Shown here one piece after another: positions 1,505-54,521 of a stretch of DNA of 64,000 nucleotides. Both the position numbers and the translations under genes were made by a program. Source of the stretch: Pseudomonadales bacterium (GTDB lineage: Bacteria; Pseudomonadota; Gammaproteobacteria; Pseudomonadales; Azotimanducaceae); NCBI GenBank assembly GCA_028285415.1, contig JANQPF010000026.1, positions 62,001 through 126,000 of the forward strand, written 5' to 3'. Position 1 is the first letter of the stretch. Each line of letters begins with the position of its first letter. The notes beneath the pieces are model-generated. The model saw only the letters and a list, made by a program, of their open reading frames with translations. It made no database searches and was not told where the DNA came from.

Positions 1505-2695
1505 ATGGTATTGGAAGGCATTACCGTGCTCGACTTCACCCGGGTGGTCGCGGGTCCTGCGTGTACGCGCACGTTGAGCGACTACGGCGCTGAGGTGCTG
1601 AAGATTGAACCCCCGGAAGGTGACCTCATGCGCCGCGGGGTGCCGAAAGCGAACGGCGTGGCGCTCGGCTACGCGCAGCAGAACGCCGGCAAGCATCATC
1701 TCTGCATCAACCTTGCGCTGCCTGCCGGGCAGGCGCTGGCACGCGACCTTGCCGCCACTGCTGACGTCATCGTGGAAAACTATCGGCCCGGTGTCGCCGC
1801 CAGACTAGGCATCGGTTTCGACGACATTGCCGCCGTCAATCCAGGAGTTGTCTACTGCTCCATTACGGGCTATGGACAGGATGGGCCTGCAGCGCACCGT
1901 CGTGCGTACGCGCCCGTGATTCATGCTGAACTCGGGCTGCTCCATCAGAACGCCATCGAGCGTGGAACCAATCCGATGCCCGAGGCGGTGTCACACGTGG
2001 ACTTCGCGGTGGGGGCGCAGGCAGCGTCTGCAATTCTCGCCGGCCTCCTGCACCGCGAACGGACCGGCGAAGGGCAACGTATTGACGTGTCCATGGCAGA
2101 GACCATGCTCGCCACGAACGAGTTCAGCGCCGTGGAGCTGAACGGCGGGTTTGGCGAGGAAATCAGCCCGTTCCGCCCCGGCAAAGCGGCGCTCCTGGAA
2201 CTCGGCGACGGCACCTGGGTGCAGGTTCCGGGGAATCCGACCACCTGGATATTCGGCGTTGCGCGCGCGCTCGGCAAAGAGGAGGCGCTGCACGCGCGCG
2301 GCTGGCACGAGCCGCGTGACACGCAGGGTCACGACGACGCCATACGCGAGCTCATGCAAAGCTGGGCGAGTGAATACCCCAATGTTGAGGCCTTCGAAAA
2401 CGCGCTGGACAGCGCCCGCATTCCGCTGGGCACGGTGCGCAGCGTCGCCGAAGTACGCAACGCCGAGTGGGCCTTGCACCGCCAGGCGCTCGTCGATCTG
2501 GACGTGAACGGGACGACGCGCAAGGTACCTCGCTCCCCTGCCCGTTTCAGCAGCGGCGAAACCGGGCCACAACGGGGCGCCTTTCCAAGAGGCGCTGACA
2601 ATCGACGGGTGCTGCGGGAGCGGCTCGGCTTAAGCGACGGCGAACTCGACGCGCTGGAGCACAATGGCGTGCTGCAATACGAGCTTGTGGACTAG
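1505..2695 (+). CDS. CaiB/BaiF (family III) CoA-transferase
   Basis: 396-residue family III CoA-transferase that would move CoA between carboxylic acids in the cytoplasm. The N-terminus reads LEGITVLDFTRVVAGPACTR, the usual CoA-binding beta-alpha unit of the family, followed by GAEVLKIEPPEGD. Asp166 in SHVDFAVG fits the catalytic aspartate that forms the aspartyl-CoA thioester; length matches the family norm (about 380-410). It starts at ATG 1505. It ends convergently on the DUF1501 gene, the two stop codons sharing the tetramer CTAG at 2692-2695. The acid used is not predictable; racemase activity is less likely because the His/Asp racemase motifs seen in the gene at 8479 are absent. Confidence 0.9.
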   Translation: MVLEGITVLDFTRVVAGPACTRTLSDYGAEVLKIEPPEGDLMRRGVPKANGVALGYAQQNAGKHHLCINLALPAGQALARDLAATADVIVENYRPGVAARLGIGFDDIAAVNPGVVYCSITGYGQDGPAAHRRAYAPVIHAELGLLHQNAIERGTNPMPEAVSHVDFAVGAQAASAILAGLLHRERTGEGQRIDVSMAETMLATNEFSAVELNGGFGEEISPFRPGKAALLELGDGTWVQVPGNPTTWIFGVARALGKEEALHARGWHEPRDTQGHDDAIRELMQSWASEYPNVEAFENALDSARIPLGTVRSVAEVRNAEWALHRQALVDLDVNGTTRKVPRSPARFSSGETGPQRGAFPRGADNRRVLRERLGLSDGELDALEHNGVLQYELVD

Positions 2696-3879
2696 CCCGT
2701 CAGGATAGGCAGCGGTGCATACCCGGCGCCAAACACCAACGCTGCATCAATGCCAAGCCAGTCCTGCACCGCGGTTGCGTAAACTCTGCGAAAGTCGGTG
2801 GTATGGGCCAGATTGTCGCCGTCAACAAGCTCCGTGAGGCTTGGCGTCTCGCCGTAGAAACCGCCGCGGACCGGTGCACCGGCCATAAACATGACGTTGG
2901 CGCTGCCGTGATCCGTGCCGAGATTCGCATTCTCCGGCACGCGGCGACCAAACTCCGAGTACACCAGCACAACCACGCGGTCAGCCTGGCCGAGACGTTC
3001 GAGATCCTGCAGAAACCCGTGGATGCCGTCGCACGCGTAGCTCAAAAGCCGTTGATGCAGTGCTGGCTGCTGGACGTGGGTGTCGAACGCATTGTTGCGA
3101 AACGCCACGTGGTAGAGCTGAGTATCGAGCCCCGCGTCGATACAGGCCGCCACCTTGGGCAGATCCATGGGTGCAATCCCGTAGTCCACCGGCGAGCGAT
3201 AGCTGCGCCAGGCGGTCTGTATGCGGTGCGCTGACACCTGTGCGCTGGCATTGACCGCTGTCAGGAAGTCCCGGGTGTCGTTGCCGGTCTCTGCAGCCAC
3301 CATCTCGGGCCGGTCCCGCAGCATCCACCGATGACGCTGAAATCGCTCCGGATCATCGAACACCGTCGGCGTATGGACCGCGCTTTTGACCGCCAGCGAC
3401 TGGCTGCCGGCAACGTTGATCAGCATATCGTCACGCCGGACCGGCGCCATCTGATCCGCCACACGGCCAAGCCACCCATACTCGCTGCCGCCGTGGGGTA
3501 CCCCGGTATGCCAATAAGCCATGGCGGTGAAGTGGGAGTACGACGGCCGGGCGTAACCGCAACCCTCGACGATGGCGAGATGACCTTCGTCCCACAGACG
3601 CTTGAACCCCAGCATGCCGGGATTCAGGCCGTAGTCGTCGTTCAACGGCAGCAGATCGGGCTGACGAATGCCTATGGTGGGACGCAGCCGGTAGTAGGCG
3701 TCATTCGTATGCGGCACCACGGAGTTGAGGCCGTCGTTGCCTCCGGAAAGCTCGACGACAACAAGAATCGGTGCACCGCGGTTGCTCGCGGCGGCAGCTG
3801 CCGACCTTCCCGCCAGCACCGGCAGGGTCACCAATCCCGCTACCCCGGCCCCGCCTTTGAGCAGAGTGCGTCTTTTCAT
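2692..3879 (-). CDS. DUF1501 Tat-exported protein
   Basis: 395-residue DUF1501 protein, a family related to the alkaline phosphatase/sulfatase fold. The N-terminus MKRRTLLKGGAGVAGLV is a plausible Tat-type signal (an RR-containing n-region followed by a Gly/Ala/Val-rich hydrophobic segment and AAAAA), so export in folded form is likely. Internal family features include VVVELSGGNDGLNSVVP near residue 41 and LVYSEFGRRVPENANLGTDHG near 305. It lies 4 bases downstream of the DUF1800 gene, with a GGGA Shine-Dalgarno-like sequence inside the end of that gene, so the two are almost certainly co-transcribed, the usual arrangement for this pair. The biochemical role of the pair is not established. Confidence 0.92.
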   Translation of the reverse strand: MKRRTLLKGGAGVAGLVTLPVLAGRSAAAAASNRGAPILVVVELSGGNDGLNSVVPHTNDAYYRLRPTIGIRQPDLLPLNDDYGLNPGMLGFKRLWDEGHLAIVEGCGYARPSYSHFTAMAYWHTGVPHGGSEYGWLGRVADQMAPVRRDDMLINVAGSQSLAVKSAVHTPTVFDDPERFQRHRWMLRDRPEMVAAETGNDTRDFLTAVNASAQVSAHRIQTAWRSYRSPVDYGIAPMDLPKVAACIDAGLDTQLYHVAFRNNAFDTHVQQPALHQRLLSYACDGIHGFLQDLERLGQADRVVVLVYSEFGRRVPENANLGTDHGSANVMFMAGAPVRGGFYGETPSLTELVDGDNLAHTTDFRRVYATAVQDWLGIDAALVFGAGYAPLPILTG

Positions 3880-48421: not shown

Positions 48422-48808
48422 ATGAGCCACGTGCCTTTCAGCCTGCCGTTCGCCGACGAACTTGGCATCAAAATCGTGAGTGCCAGCGCCACCGAGGTGG
48501 TTGGAGAACTGCAAGTACGCGAAGCGTTGTGTACGACCGGCGCGCGTATGCACGGTGGCGCCCTCATGAGCCTCGCGGACACGCTGGGCGCTGTCGGTGC
48601 CTTTCTTGCGCTTCCCGAGGGGAGCACGGGTACGACCACTATCGAGTCCAAAACCAATTTCGTCGGTGCAGCGAACGTCGACACCACGGTGACCGGCACC
48701 ACTACGCCGGTCCACGTCGGCCGGCGCACGTCGATCTGGCAGACACGGGTCACATCCGAGGAAGGCAAACTCGTCGCCGTTGTGACCCAGACGCAGCTGG
48801 TGCTTTGA
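48422..48808 (+). CDS. PaaI-type acyl-CoA thioesterase (hot-dog)
   Basis: 128-residue single hot-dog thioesterase. AGGAG lies about seven bases before ATG 48422. The catalytic turn MHGGALMSLADTLGAVGAF (residues 43-61) has the His-Gly-Gly and Asp of the PaaI/ YdiI group; STGTTTIESKTNFVGAA and RRTSIWQTRVTSEEGKLVAVVTQTQ are the following strands. Likely hydrolyses an aryl- or medium-chain acyl-CoA. It is 27 bases after the LysR gene and 38 before the Sec-peroxiredoxin gene. Confidence 0.9.
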   Translation: MSHVPFSLPFADELGIKIVSASATEVVGELQVREALCTTGARMHGGALMSLADTLGAVGAFLALPEGSTGTTTIESKTNFVGAANVDTTVTGTTTPVHVGRRTSIWQTRVTSEEGKLVAVVTQTQLVL

Positions 48809-48846: not shown

Positions 48847-50022
48847 ATGCAGACGACCACGCAACTCAGCGAACGCACATCCCGGCAACGCTTGCTTGCC
48901 GCGCTTGTGGTTTGCCTCGCCTGTGCCCCGCTAACCGCCATCAGTGACACCTTTCCCGCGTACAAACCCTCGTCGCGCAGCCCCGCTCCGTTAGATATTC
49001 GCAGCAACGCTTACGGCGCCAGTCGCGACGCCCCCGACGCGCTCAAAATTGGCGAGGTTGCGCCGGATTTTGCCGCACCCCGGGCGGGCGGTGGCATCGT
49101 CAACAGCCGGATTCTGCGCCGTGAGGGACCGCTGGTCCTGATTTTTTACCGCGGTCACTGGTGACCCGCATGCAACGTGCAGCTCGGTGAGCTGCAGCAT
49201 CAGATGGCACGGTTCGAGCGGCGCAACGCCACCGTCGTTGCGCTGTCTGTAGACGCGCCGGACGATTCGCTCGCGATGATCGAGCGCCTCGGCATGACCT
49301 ATCCAGTTGCCAGCGATCCGAATCAGCGCGTGGTACAGCTCTTTGGCGTCCAGAATCCGCAAACGCGGGAGCTTGCGCTGCACGCGGTGTATATCGTCGC
49401 CACTGATGGCACCATCTTCTACCGTAAAGTCGGTCGGCGCCGACCGGTGTCCGTGGAGCTGATCGACGCCATCGACGCCCACCGCGGCGAGTATCCACAA
49501 ACGGACGTTGTCGAAGGCGCCAGGCGAACCGCCGTGGCGTACCCGACAAACAACTTTCAGGCCTTACTGGAGGTCAGCCAGGCAACGCCTCCGGCTGCAT
49601 CCGTGCACCCAGAAGCGCTCAGCAACGTGCTGGCGCTCGTCCGTTCTGGACGCGGCGACGACGCCGTGTTTGCGTACCGAAAACTCATCCGCATGAGCCC
49701 TGCGGCAGACCGCGAAGCGCTCTACAACACGGCAGCATGGATGGCACGAGAGCTATTCTTTGCACCGTCCGCAGACGCCCTCGCCGTTGGCACGGAACTG
49801 GGGCAGCGCATTGCCCGCGTACGTGAGCTGGAAACGCAGCTTGCTGCTGCCGGAGACGAGCGTGATACCGTCGAGGCGCAACTCGCCGCCGCCCGCGCGG
49901 GGCTCAGCGGTGTGCGCGCCAGGATCAATCAGAACGCGGATGACTGGCGCCTGCGTTCGGTAAAAACCACCATTCGCGCATACCGTGAGCTGTCCCGCGC
50001 CGGGACGCTCAACGATTCCTGA
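48847..50022 (+). CDS. Exported peroxiredoxin-like selenoprotein (in-frame TGA as Sec106, UxxC)
   Basis: 391 codons in one frame from ATG 48847 to the TGA/TAA region at 50022, broken only by TGA at 49162-49164 (residue 106). Just before it is the AhpC/TSA strand GPLVLIFYRGHW, just after it PACNVQLGELQHQMARFERRNATVVALSVDAP, so the TGA replaces the first Cys of the family WCPxC motif, giving U-P-A-C (Sec106, Cys109). A SECIS-like stem-loop lies 21 bases downstream. A signal peptide (RQRLLAALVVCLACAPLTA) predicts periplasmic location. After the thioredoxin-like domain (to about residue 210), an Ala/Glu-rich coiled coil ends the protein. The alternative, a nonsense-mutated Cys codon, is less likely. 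ATG has no clear Shine-Dalgarno. Confidence 0.82.
49170..49200 (+). promoter_or_regulatory. Bacterial SECIS-like element for Sec insertion
   Basis: An mRNA hairpin starts 5 bases after the in-frame TGA. The upper stem is a perfect 8 bp, TGCAGCTC (49178-49185) with GAGCTGCA (49189-49196), closed by the loop GGT. A four-base bulge (AACG) separates it from a lower stem ATGC (49170-49173) with GCAT (49197-49200). The loop is 21 bases from the TGA, within the 16-37 spacing known for bacterial SECIS, and begins with G, as the E. coli fdhF loop does. SelB binding is inferred. Confidence 0.72.
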
Positions 50023-51200: not shown

Positions 51201-54200
51201 TCATCGGCCGGTGGCCGCGACGCGGTCGTCCTCCCAGTCGAGTTTCAACTGTCCGGGGATAGAGCTGTCGACGATCAGCTTGCCGCTTTCGATGAGCGTG
51301 CCGAAGTCCTGCGTCATCGAGCTGAAGTCCGAAACTTCCAAAGTATCCGAACCGTCGATGCTGACCCAGGCGTTACGACCGTTTGCTTTCGCAATGTAAG
51401 CTGCTTTGTCTGCGATCGCCGCCACCTGCTCCCAGCGCACGCTGGCGAGACGCGATTGACCCATGGGAAACGGTGACACACCAATAGATCCACTGACACG
51501 GCCTTCTTCATCGGGTAGCCCAACGTCATACGCAATCGCCGCTAGAGATTCGCGAATTCGTTCAGCAAGTACCTTCACGCCATTAAAGCTCGAGGCATGG
51601 CCGATGATCATGAATTCGTCCCCACCCCAGCGGACAATCACGTCCGATTCACGGCAGCAGGTCTCCAGGCGTTCTTTGACCTGTACCAGGACGTTGTCGC
51701 CCGCCTGGTGTCCAAAGGTATCGTTGATGTACTTGAAACCGTCCAGATCGATCATCATGAAAAACAGGAGCTTGGAAGAGTCCTGAGCTTCGACGTTGTT
51801 GATTTCGGCGGTGTCGCCTTCAATCAAACGCCGACGAACCATCGCAGTCTCCGCGCCGATGAACTGATCGACATATCGACGGTTTCGCAGTCCCGTGAGT
51901 GAGTCTGTTACGCTGGCTTCGGCAAGACGTTCGTTCAGGCGCTCCAGCTGGGCATAGCGAGCTGCGAGTTCCGAGGTACGCTCCCTGACCTCCTGCTCGA
52001 GTTTTGCCCGCTGCTCCGCTTCACGTCGGTGGGCCACGCGTTGCGCCCGGAGATACCAGAGCAGCAAACTCATGCCGATGAACGCGTATGCCATGTATGC
52101 CCACCACTGACGCCACGGCGGCGGTATCACCGTAACGGCAATAGACGCAGGCTCTTCGCTCCAGACACCATCGTTGTTGGCACCCAGCACCTCGAACACA
52201 TAGTCGCCGGATGGCAGATTGGAGTAGACCGCGCGCCGAAAGCGAGTCTCTTCTACCCACGCCTCGTCAAACCCCCGAAGCCGGTAGCGAAACTGATTCT
52301 TGTCAGCCGAGACGAAGTCGAGAGCAACGAAATCGAACGCAATGAACGGGTCCAGATACGCAAGCTCTACCCGCGGCGTCACGCCATCGTTTGCAGCTTT
52401 CGATAGCAAGGCATCACGAGATCGGGCGCTGGCGTGAACCTGAGGGGCCCGGCCATTGCGGGGAATTTCTGCCGGAAAGAAGCCGACGACGCCTTTATTA
52501 CTCCCGAACAGGAGGCGCCCGCTGCGGCTGCGCAGCGCCGCTCCCTGATTGAAGTCCGAGGTTTGCAAACCGTTTTCCACGTCAAAATGCGCCACGTTCT
52601 GACTCTCGGGATCAAATCGATAGAGCCCCCGGCTCGTGCTTGCCCAGATTTCACCCATGGCGCCGGGAACCGCGCCGTACACGGTCGACGCCAACCCCTG
52701 CGCGGTGCCGTAGCGTTGCAGCTCGAGCTGGCCGTTGGCCCGCGCATTCGCGTTCCAGCGCACCAGCCCTTCGTTCATCGTGCTGATCCAGAACGTACCG
52801 TCTGACGATTCGGAAAGATCCCACGCGGTCCCCTTGTCTGCGTCGTGGTTGTTGACATCGTCTGTCAGTGGATAGTGCTTGAACGTGCCGGCTTCGCGAT
52901 CGACGAGCACGTTGAGGCCACCGGCTTCTGTACCGATCCAGAGCCTGCCGTCATCGTCCCCATGCAAAGTCAGAACGCGATCGCTGCTCAGCGATCTCGA
53001 ATCGTCGGGATCTTTCCGATAGTGGAAAAACAGGCCGGATTCGACGTCCGCCAGGTAGTTGAGACCACCATCGAACACGCCAACCCACACGCCACCGTCG
53101 TCGTCGACGTGAATGCTCGTAATGGCGTCACCACTCAGCGAATCCGGGTCCTCCGGATTGTGACGGAACGTCCTGAAACGCCCATCTTTGCCGAGCATGT
53201 TGAGACCGTGATAGCGCGTGCCAACCCAGACGCGGTCCTGCGCGTCTACCTGCACGGCCATGACCCGATCATCGGAGATTGTCCCGGCCGCGTCTGCATC
53301 ATGTCGGTAGTGGCGGGCCTCACCGATGGCCAGATCGAGGCGGGTCAGGCCGCCGCCGTAGGTGCCCACCCAGAGAACTCCTTCACTGTTCTCGGCAATA
53401 GACGAGACGCGGTTGTCAGCAAGAAAATCCTGGGCAACCTGATAGTGCGCGAACGTGTCGCTGAAGTAGTTCCAGCTGCTTACCCCGCCGCTCGTCGCAA
53501 GCCACAGGACGCCGGAATTGTCCTGGTAGATCGCGTTGATGGTGTCATTCACGAGGCTCGACGGTAGCGCCTCGTTGTTTCGGTAGCGAACGAATCCCTG
53601 CACTCCCGGACGCCATTCCGACAAGCCCTCTTCCGTCCCCACCCAGAGCGAACCCTTGTTGTCCTCGAAAATTGCCGGTACCTGACCGGCCCCAAGGCTG
53701 TTGGGATCCGCCGCGTCATGTATGAACCGCCGAAAAGTGCCTGACGTGTCGTCGAGCAGATTCAATCCCCCTTTGGCGGTACCCACCCAGACGTTGCCCG
53801 AGCGGTCTTCGTAGATCGAACGTATTGCGTCATCGGCGATGCTGGCCGCGTTGTCGGCATCGTACCGAAACGTATGAAATCCGTTGCTGGCGCGGTCGAG
53901 CCGCGCAAGCCCGCCGCCATCCGTACCCACCCAGAGGCGGTCGCGCCGATCACGCATCAACGCGATGACGTGATTGCTGGGCAAGCTGTCGGCGCGTTGC
54001 GCATCGTGCTCATAGTGGCCTATCTCTCCGCTCCCCGTATCAACGGCAAAAAGCCCCGCGTCCACGGTACCCAGCCACATGGTGTTACCGTCTTTGACAG
54101 ACGTGCGCACACGCAGACTCCTGAGATCGGAGGGCAGGTTCAGCGGATTGCGGTCAAACGCATCTTCTTCGTAGTTGTACCGGTTGACGCCATTGTTCGT

Positions 54201-54521
54201 AGACACCCATAACGTACCGTCCTCGTCGACGTACAGCGACCAGACGAAGTTGTTGCTCAACGAACGTGGGTTCTTTGCATCGTGCTCATACACAATCAGC
54301 TCATGGCCGTCGAAGCGGTTCAAACCGTTCTGGGTGCCGAACCACATGTAGCCGTATGAGTCTTGTACAACGGCAAACACATACTCACCCGACAAGCCGT
54401 CGGTGGCCGTGATGTTCGAGAACTGCAGGTTGCGGGCAATGCGCGAGCTGGCTTGCAGCGGATCCGCGGCAAGCAGCAATGAGACCAGAATCAGGGAGCC
54501 CGCAACGGCGCGTCTGATCAC
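51201..54521 (-). CDS. Membrane diguanylate cyclase with periplasmic beta-propeller sensor
   Basis: 1106-residue c-di-GMP synthase. Signal peptide (GSLILVSLLLAADPLQA); about residues 30-690 form a two-component-regulator propeller (repeated GxLWVGTxxGGLxxLD units); Y_Y_Y domain near 730-795; one membrane segment near 804-824 (AYMAYAFIGMSLLLWYL); coiled coil 830-870; GGDEF domain 875-1060. The GGDEF motif is intact (RWGGDEFMIIG, residues about 964-968), with the RESD inhibitory site five residues before it. Its ATG overlaps the sigma54-activator stop by 4 bases, so it is the third gene of that operon. A diffusible or polymeric ligand in the periplasm is probably sensed. Confidence 0.93.
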   Translation of the reverse strand: MIRRAVAGSLILVSLLLAADPLQASSRIARNLQFSNITATDGLSGEYVFAVVQDSYGYMWFGTQNGLNRFDGHELIVYEHDAKNPRSLSNNFVWSLYVDEDGTLWVSTNNGVNRYNYEEDAFDRNPLNLPSDLRSLRVRTSVKDGNTMWLGTVDAGLFAVDTGSGEIGHYEHDAQRADSLPSNHVIALMRDRRDRLWVGTDGGGLARLDRASNGFHTFRYDADNAASIADDAIRSIYEDRSGNVWVGTAKGGLNLLDDTSGTFRRFIHDAADPNSLGAGQVPAIFEDNKGSLWVGTEEGLSEWRPGVQGFVRYRNNEALPSSLVNDTINAIYQDNSGVLWLATSGGVSSWNYFSDTFAHYQVAQDFLADNRVSSIAENSEGVLWVGTYGGGLTRLDLAIGEARHYRHDADAAGTISDDRVMAVQVDAQDRVWVGTRYHGLNMLGKDGRFRTFRHNPEDPDSLSGDAITSIHVDDDGGVWVGVFDGGLNYLADVESGLFFHYRKDPDDSRSLSSDRVLTLHGDDDGRLWIGTEAGGLNVLVDREAGTFKHYPLTDDVNNHDADKGTAWDLSESSDGTFWISTMNEGLVRWNANARANGQLELQRYGTAQGLASTVYGAVPGAMGEIWASTSRGLYRFDPESQNVAHFDVENGLQTSDFNQGAALRSRSGRLLFGSNKGVVGFFPAEIPRNGRAPQVHASARSRDALLSKAANDGVTPRVELAYLDPFIAFDFVALDFVSADKNQFRYRLRGFDEAWVEETRFRRAVYSNLPSGDYVFEVLGANNDGVWSEEPASIAVTVIPPPWRQWWAYMAYAFIGMSLLLWYLRAQRVAHRREAEQRAKLEQEVRERTSELAARYAQLERLNERLAEASVTDSLTGLRNRRYVDQFIGAETAMVRRRLIEGDTAEINNVEAQDSSKLLFFMMIDLDGFKYINDTFGHQAGDNVLVQVKERLETCCRESDVIVRWGGDEFMIIGHASSFNGVKVLAERIRESLAAIAYDVGLPDEEGRVSGSIGVSPFPMGQSRLASVRWEQVAAIADKAAYIAKANGRNAWVSIDGSDTLEVSDFSSMTQDFGTLIESGKLIVDSSIPGQLKLDWEDDRVAATGR

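What the first reader, a model, noticed from the sequence alone, without database searches (positions are those of the whole stretch)
48847..50022. Probable selenoprotein: peroxiredoxin-like gene with TGA at the catalytic Cys
The frame runs uninterrupted for 391 codons except for one TGA (49162-49164). It falls exactly where the first Cys of the AhpC/TSA WCPxC motif should be: ...FYRGHW[TGA]PACNVQL.... Both halves keep normal family sequence, codon use and length. An 8-bp perfect stem with a GGT loop lies 21 bases downstream, with a lower ATGC/GCAT stem and a four-base bulge, resembling a bacterial SECIS. A Sec-Pro-Ala-Cys redox centre in an exported peroxiredoxin carrying a long C-terminal coiled coil is unusual. 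Standard gene callers would split or truncate it.
Basis: partly seen in the sequence, partly recalled or inferred. Interest (0 to 1): 0.92.

Follow-up and report, generated by a model that had tools for sequence, protein, structure and literature searches.

The report
Selenocysteine Prx-like redox protein gene
A bacterial gene that looks broken by an internal stop codon is very probably an intact gene for a selenium-containing redox protein of an already recognised type, with an unusual extra helical tail and several predicted selenoprotein companions in the same genome.

Summary
The frame 48847-50022 is open except for TGA at 49162-49164, inside FYRGHW[U]PACNVQL. The genome carries selA-selB-selC side by side and selD elsewhere. 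The codons just after TGA are the most synonymously conserved stretch of the gene, and an 8-bp GGU/GGC-loop hairpin fits the published bacterial SECIS model. So it is very probably a selenoprotein; there are no experimental data.

The 'peroxiredoxin' label needs a correction. Sec106 aligns with the Thr/Ser of the Prx motif; Cys109 takes the peroxidatic place, and the Prx Pro and Arg align with Arg102 and His179. This is the known 'Prx-like, UxxC' type (PMC2398784, PMC13188914). What looks new is a conserved C-terminal helical domain without Pfam or PDB relatives found, an invariant His where 28 of 29 Cys homologues have Pro, and a genome with nine TGA-bearing redox genes in two Pfam families.

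The parts
48847..50022 (+). selenoprotein gene, 391 residues with Sec at 106; stop codon TGA 50020-50022
48847..48942 (+). N-terminal hydrophobic stretch, probable export signal
   Evidence: read by eye in the window protein and the orthologues; no signal-peptide program was run
49048..49422 (+). AhpC-TSA (PF00578) domain, residues 68-192
   Evidence: E 3.1e-26; fold matches to Bcp, AhpE and ResA
49162..49164 (+). in-frame TGA read as selenocysteine 106 (UxxC motif)
   Evidence: TGA in 8 of 8 orthologues
49171..49173 (+). Cys109, partner of Sec106; aligns with the peroxidatic Cys of Prx
49178..49196 (+). bacterial SECIS hairpin, 8 bp with GGT loop
49381..49383 (+). His179, at the place of the Prx Arg and of Pro in the Cys homologues
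49552..50019 (+). C-terminal all-helical domain, no Pfam or PDB relative found, no Cys in the window protein
48422..48808 (+). upstream 4HBT thioesterase gene, also upstream in 4 of 7 other orthologue loci

Best explanation
The gene encodes an exported thioredoxin-fold oxidoreductase in which UGA is decoded as selenocysteine by SelA, SelB, SelD and tRNA-Sec, directed by the hairpin just after the UGA. Sec106 and Cys109 form a UxxC redox pair: the selenolate attacks a disulfide, or a peroxide or other oxidised thiol, in the cell envelope, a Se-S bond forms with Cys109, and a thioredoxin-type partner reduces it again. The C-terminal helical domain probably serves docking or oligomerisation. Supported by sequence here: machinery, TGA conservation, hairpin constraint, domain, UxxC site. 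Inferred: Sec incorporation itself, export, chemistry, substrate, reductant, role of the tail.
For: selB 408.8 bits and tRNA-Sec 73.6 bits, both over cut-off, adjacent on G000:C4; selA 523.7 bits directly upstream of selB; selD 271 bits. TGA in 8 of 8 orthologues, downstream part conserved to the end in 7 of 8. Synonymous identity 0.60 in codons 107-119 against 0.39 (37-105) and 0.38 (120-390); of 302 windows with enough comparable pairs the top one is codons 109-121, 0.62. Upper stem 98.4% paired; the pair between Gln112 third base and Leu116 first base is A-U in 5 and G-C in 3, silent on both sides. The published SECIS limits (loop 3-9 nt, upper stem 4-16 bp, a G in the first two loop bases, spacing 16-37 nt, energy -7.5 or lower; PMC13188914 section 5) are met: 3 nt, 8 bp, G, 21 nt, -15.8. 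4 of 8 orthologues use TGA as their own terminator, so TGA is not reassigned throughout. Six further AhpC-TSA genes of the genome have TGA in an active-site motif.
Against: No protein or RNA data. Energy z-score only -0.51. In 2 of 8 orthologues (L021, L049) the lowest-energy fold is not the proposed hairpin, and L021 has a mismatch at the top pair. Covariation shuffles: the five measures were reached by 119, 327, 44, 491 and 92 of 500. Two loops are GGC, not GGT. Of the six orthologue-bearing relatives searched, tRNA-Sec was found in 4; G009 gave neither selB (E 1e-60) nor tRNA-Sec (E 1e-10), G026 only part of selB and no tRNA-Sec; both are drafts of 240-520 contigs. Sec machinery of the named MAG was not looked for. 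L025 has a further TAA in its tail. Export and chemistry are untested.
Confidence: 0.86

Rival explanations
1. Sub-case that shares the Sec reading: the selenoprotein works mainly as a peroxidase, with Cys109 (or Sec106) attacking hydroperoxides as in peroxiredoxins.
For: AhpC-TSA 92.2 bits; Cys109 aligns with the peroxidatic Cys of 2cx3; best fold matches include Bcp, BcpB, a 1-Cys Prx and AhpE.
Against: The Pro, Ser/Thr and Arg of the Prx active site align with Arg102, Sec106 and His179; ResA and DsbE structures also match the domain.
Confidence: 0.3
2. A decayed gene: the TGA is a real stop and the rest is a pseudogene.
For: One of 8 orthologues (L025) has a further TAA in the tail.
Against: TGA at the same codon in 8 of 8 orthologues with downstream protein conserved, and the strongest synonymous constraint of the gene right after TGA.
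Confidence: 0.02
3. A sequencing or assembly error in a Cys codon.
For: None found; reads were not available.
Against: The same TGA in seven other genomes or records.
Confidence: 0.01
4. TGA is reassigned or read through without SECIS, giving Trp, Cys or another residue.
For: In-frame TGA occurs in several genes of this genome.
Against: TGA is the terminator of 4 of 8 orthologues; the inner TGAs of the seven AhpC-TSA and two CMD genes lie in redox motifs; complete Sec machinery.
Confidence: 0.02

Closest known systems
Prx-like 1 selenoproteins (pfam00578, UxxC)
   Same: Same Pfam family and Sec first in UxxC; 225 in the GOS table (PMC2398784), 21 UxxC and 1 UxC of 22 Prx-like in the Sargasso Sea set (PMC1088965), 'Prx-like thiol:disulfide oxidoreductase' in PMC13188914 table 1. 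Passages seen, not whole papers.
   Different: C-terminal helical domain without relatives found; His179.
Cys 'FYRGxWCP[YF]C' AhpC-TSA proteins of the same class
   Same: Same active-site frame; Cys at both places in 29 of 29 loci examined.
   Different: Cys instead of Sec; CP[YF]C instead of UPAC; Pro in 28 of 29 where this clade has His; matches stop short of the tail.
Sec-containing peroxiredoxin (TxxU; PrxU NF040737)
   Same: AhpC-TSA fold.
   Different: Here Sec lies three residues earlier, at the T position; NF040737 25.1 bits against a cut-off of 270.
SelL-related redox protein (NF040769)
   Same: Best NCBIfam score, 46.8 bits, over residues 91-186.
   Different: Below the cut-off of 120.
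ResA-type thiol-disulfide oxidoreductases
   Same: CxxC/UxxC position and fold.
   Different: His179 where the Cys homologues have Pro (a Pro there in ResA is recalled); extra tail.

Membership tests
bacterial selenoprotein | in-frame UGA where homologues have Cys | tested here: met
   8 of 8 orthologues TGA; 29 of 29 class loci examined have Cys there
bacterial selenoprotein | SECIS hairpin after UGA within the published limits | tested here: met
   the window meets the limits in PMC13188914 section 5; 6 of 8 orthologues do so in the lowest-energy fold, L021 and L049 do not; looser forms of the model are common by chance (17%)
bacterial selenoprotein | selA, selB, selC, selD in the genome | tested here: met
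   own genome. In orthologue-bearing drafts G009 and G026 not complete
bacterial selenoprotein | selenium actually incorporated | not testable with these tools
   needs 75Se labelling or mass spectrometry
Prx-like selenoprotein, UxxC (PF00578) | AhpC-TSA domain with UxxC | tested here: met
   definition from PMC13188914 table 1 and PMC2398784
peroxiredoxin | Pro, Thr/Ser and Arg around the peroxidatic Cys | tested here: not met
   printed alignment with 2cx3: Arg102, Sec106, His179 instead. PxxxTxxU is in PMC13188914; the role of the Arg is recalled
peroxiredoxin | peroxidase activity | not testable with these tools
   needs the enzyme
SelL-related redox protein NF040769 | score over the curated cut-off of 120 bits | tested here: not met
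   46.8 bits

The most novel reading that the evidence does not exclude
The clade is a distinct envelope selenoenzyme: UxxC with His in place of the active-site Pro, joined to a new helical domain that brings a specific partner or substrate. It belongs to a genus, probably gammaproteobacterial, that has expanded Sec use across AhpC-TSA, ResA-like and AhpD-like paralogues, which would make it a selenoprotein-rich lineage outside the three groups to which most rich organisms belonged in the 2016 survey.
Probability: 0.4. Interest if true: 0.6.

Novelty: new variant of a known kind. Interest (0 to 1): 0.42.

Why it matters
A standard ORF listing splits this gene at the TGA, and the other TGA-bearing genes would be split in the same way, so the redox system of this genus is probably misread in databases. 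A selenocysteine enzyme with a clade-specific His and an unclassified helical tail is a concrete target for asking what Sec adds over Cys in thiol chemistry. In the 2016 survey most selenoprotein-rich organisms (six or more genes) were Deltaproteobacteria, Clostridia and Synergistetes (PMC5029168, passages); this genome passes that number by prediction within two Pfam families.

Tried and rejected
Folding energy as proof: rejected, z -0.51. The lower stem as part of the SECIS: rejected, not conserved. Covariation as strong statistical proof: rejected, one silent compensatory pair in 8 sequences, shuffles not extreme. Cys orthologue inside the clade: none among 40 genus genomes at E 1e-40 (7 have the gene, all TGA); a partial orthologue in G031 ends at the contig edge before codon 106, and a G008 fragment is another Cys homologue with WCPYC. 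C-terminal domain identity: no Pfam hit at E 0.01, no PDB fold match at E 0.001. The scan of named genomes gave one more orthologue from 30 candidate stretches. Four paper searches showed no title or abstract about such a tail; the genus has no name here, so it could not be searched for by name. Of papers I saw the listings, passages of five (PMC13188914; PMC1088965; PMC5029168; PMC12013277; PMC2398784) and section 5 of PMC13188914. This is no proof of absence from print.

Full report
Observation. The frame at 48847-50022 gives 391 residues with one inner TGA at codon 106, in FYRGHW[U]PACNVQL. The downstream hairpin is real: 8 bp with a GGT loop, the loop 21 nt after TGA. Its energy is no better than that of shuffles (z -0.51). 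Of 4000 coding positions sampled from 23 long open frames of the window, 35 carry a hairpin of 8 or more contiguous pairs within the loop, spacing and energy limits, and 17% one of 4 or more pairs.

Machinery. The window lies in a 34-contig, 5.97-Mb genome estimated 99% complete and 3.2% contaminated. selB (408.8 bits) and tRNA-Sec (73.6 bits) are over their cut-offs and adjacent on contig C4. selA (523.7 bits) overlaps the start of selB by four bases, and selD (271 bits) is on C21. C4 also carries genes that look like citrate synthase and succinate dehydrogenase (names recalled); that C4 is not contamination is an inference. Across 58 genomes, selB matches at E 1e-60 in 27 of 37 of the same genus, own included, and in 4 of 21 of the rest of the order.

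Orthologues. Among the 58, six besides the own genome give near full-length matches of 51-57% identity, each with one TGA inside; one (G018) also has a TAA. A named record, JALZVT010000012.1 (Pseudomonadales bacterium MAG), gives another. In all 8, own included, the TGA sits at the same codon and PACNVQLGELQ after it is invariant. Among 40 genomes of the genus searched with the profile at E 1e-40, 7 have the gene, all with TGA (the TAG also counted in G006 lies just before the start codon). Among 369 genomes drawn from the class, 32 besides the own genome match at E 1e-22; in that search at most five first-look candidates a genome were scored. All 34 of their matches lack stops; 33 end by profile position 180 and one at 213, so none covers the tail. 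In the 29 loci fetched of those 34 the motif is W-C-P-[YF]-C every time.

Selection on the RNA. Synonymous identity among orthologue pairs that share the amino acid is 0.60 for codons 107-119, 0.39 for codons 37-105 and 0.38 for codons 120-390; the best of 302 sliding windows begins at codon 109. The upper stem pairs in 98.4% of cells. One pair changes on both sides (A-U in 5, G-C in 3) and is silent in both codons. Shuffle controls are not extreme (44 of 500 at best), so the covariation is supportive only. In L021 and L049 another fold has lower energy. The window's stem-loop meets the model in section 5 of PMC13188914.

The protein. The AhpC-TSA domain spans residues 68-192. In the printed alignment with 2cx3, Sec106 pairs with the Ser of the Prx motif, Cys109 with its Cys, Arg102 with the Pro and His179 with an Arg (that this Arg is the catalytic one of Prx is recalled). 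His179 is invariant in 8 of 8 orthologues; 28 of 29 Cys homologues have Pro there (the alignment has a gap nearby). The AlphaFold2 model has mean pLDDT 81; its best fold matches are Bcp, AhpE, a 1-Cys Prx, AhpC2 and ResA. The tail alone (residues 231-391) models at pLDDT 92 as seven helices, with no Pfam hit and no PDB match at E 0.001. The window's tail holds no Cys, unlike the fused domains described in PMC2398784 (passages). The N-termini of the orthologues look like export signals by eye.

Context in the genome. Of 19 AhpC-TSA matches in the own genome, 7 contain a TGA, all in active-site motifs: TSGUT once, W-U-P-x-C four times (this gene included), W-U-G-C twice. The two UGC proteins match NF041054 (ResA-like WAxxUGC) at 253 and 269 bits, under its cut-off of 300. 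Of 18 CMD matches, 2 have a TGA in a C-x-x-U motif, one of them under the family cut-off; of 14 DsbA matches none has a TGA. That is nine predicted selenoproteins in the three families searched, against the threshold of six for 'selenoprotein-rich' in PMC5029168 (passages). No other family was counted.

What is known. UxxC Prx-like selenoproteins are in print: 22 Prx-like, 21 of them UxxC, in the Sargasso Sea set of 2005 (PMC1088965 passages), 225 'Prx-like 1' in GOS (PMC2398784 passages), and 'predicted with high confidence' in the 2026 review (PMC13188914 passages). Fusions of Trx-fold selenoproteins with unknown domains are also in print (PMC2398784). The kind is therefore known. For the tailed, His-bearing clade I found no description in four paper searches, of which I saw listings and passages only.

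Against the reading. No experimental data. Of the six orthologue-bearing relatives, tRNA-Sec was found in 4 (G006, G008, G018, G030); G009 has neither selB at E 1e-60 nor tRNA-Sec at E 1e-10, and G026 only part of selB and no tRNA-Sec; both are draft assemblies. L025 carries a TAA in the tail. The chemistry (disulfide reductase rather than peroxidase) rests on residue alignment and is about two to one in my judgement.

Noticed in passing
L017 (G000:C4) 2229-3488, minus strand: An ORF that looks like a tyrosine integrase (by eye, no family search) lies directly downstream of tRNA-Sec (3571-3659), so selC may be an integration site here.
   Followed up: no
L083-L088 (own genome): Six further AhpC-TSA genes with TGA in the active-site motif: TSGUT, DWUPFC twice, SWUGC twice, LWUPPC.
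   Followed up: partly
L154 and L155 (own genome): Two AhpD/CMD-like genes with C-x-x-U through an in-frame TGA, each followed by a predicted stem-loop.
   Followed up: partly
L027, L029, L040, L074, L078, L079, L082 (same genus): A second group with frames of 384-414 residues and VWUPPC (VWUPAC in L079) through TGA, only distantly like the window protein.
   Followed up: no
L129 (G026:C110), about 1-300, against L069-L072: A Cys form (TRGCT) in the genus of the Prx paralogue that has TSGUT or TKGUT in other members: a Cys/Sec alternation.
   Followed up: no
window 48422-48808: A 4HBT thioesterase gene precedes the selenoprotein gene here and lies upstream in 4 of 7 other orthologue loci.
   Followed up: partly
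window 51201-54521, minus strand: Reg_prop/Y_Y_Y sensor protein with a GGDEF domain.
   Followed up: no
L025 (G018), tail of the orthologue: In-frame TAA 243 residues after the Sec codon; the frame beyond it still reads like the family.
   Followed up: no
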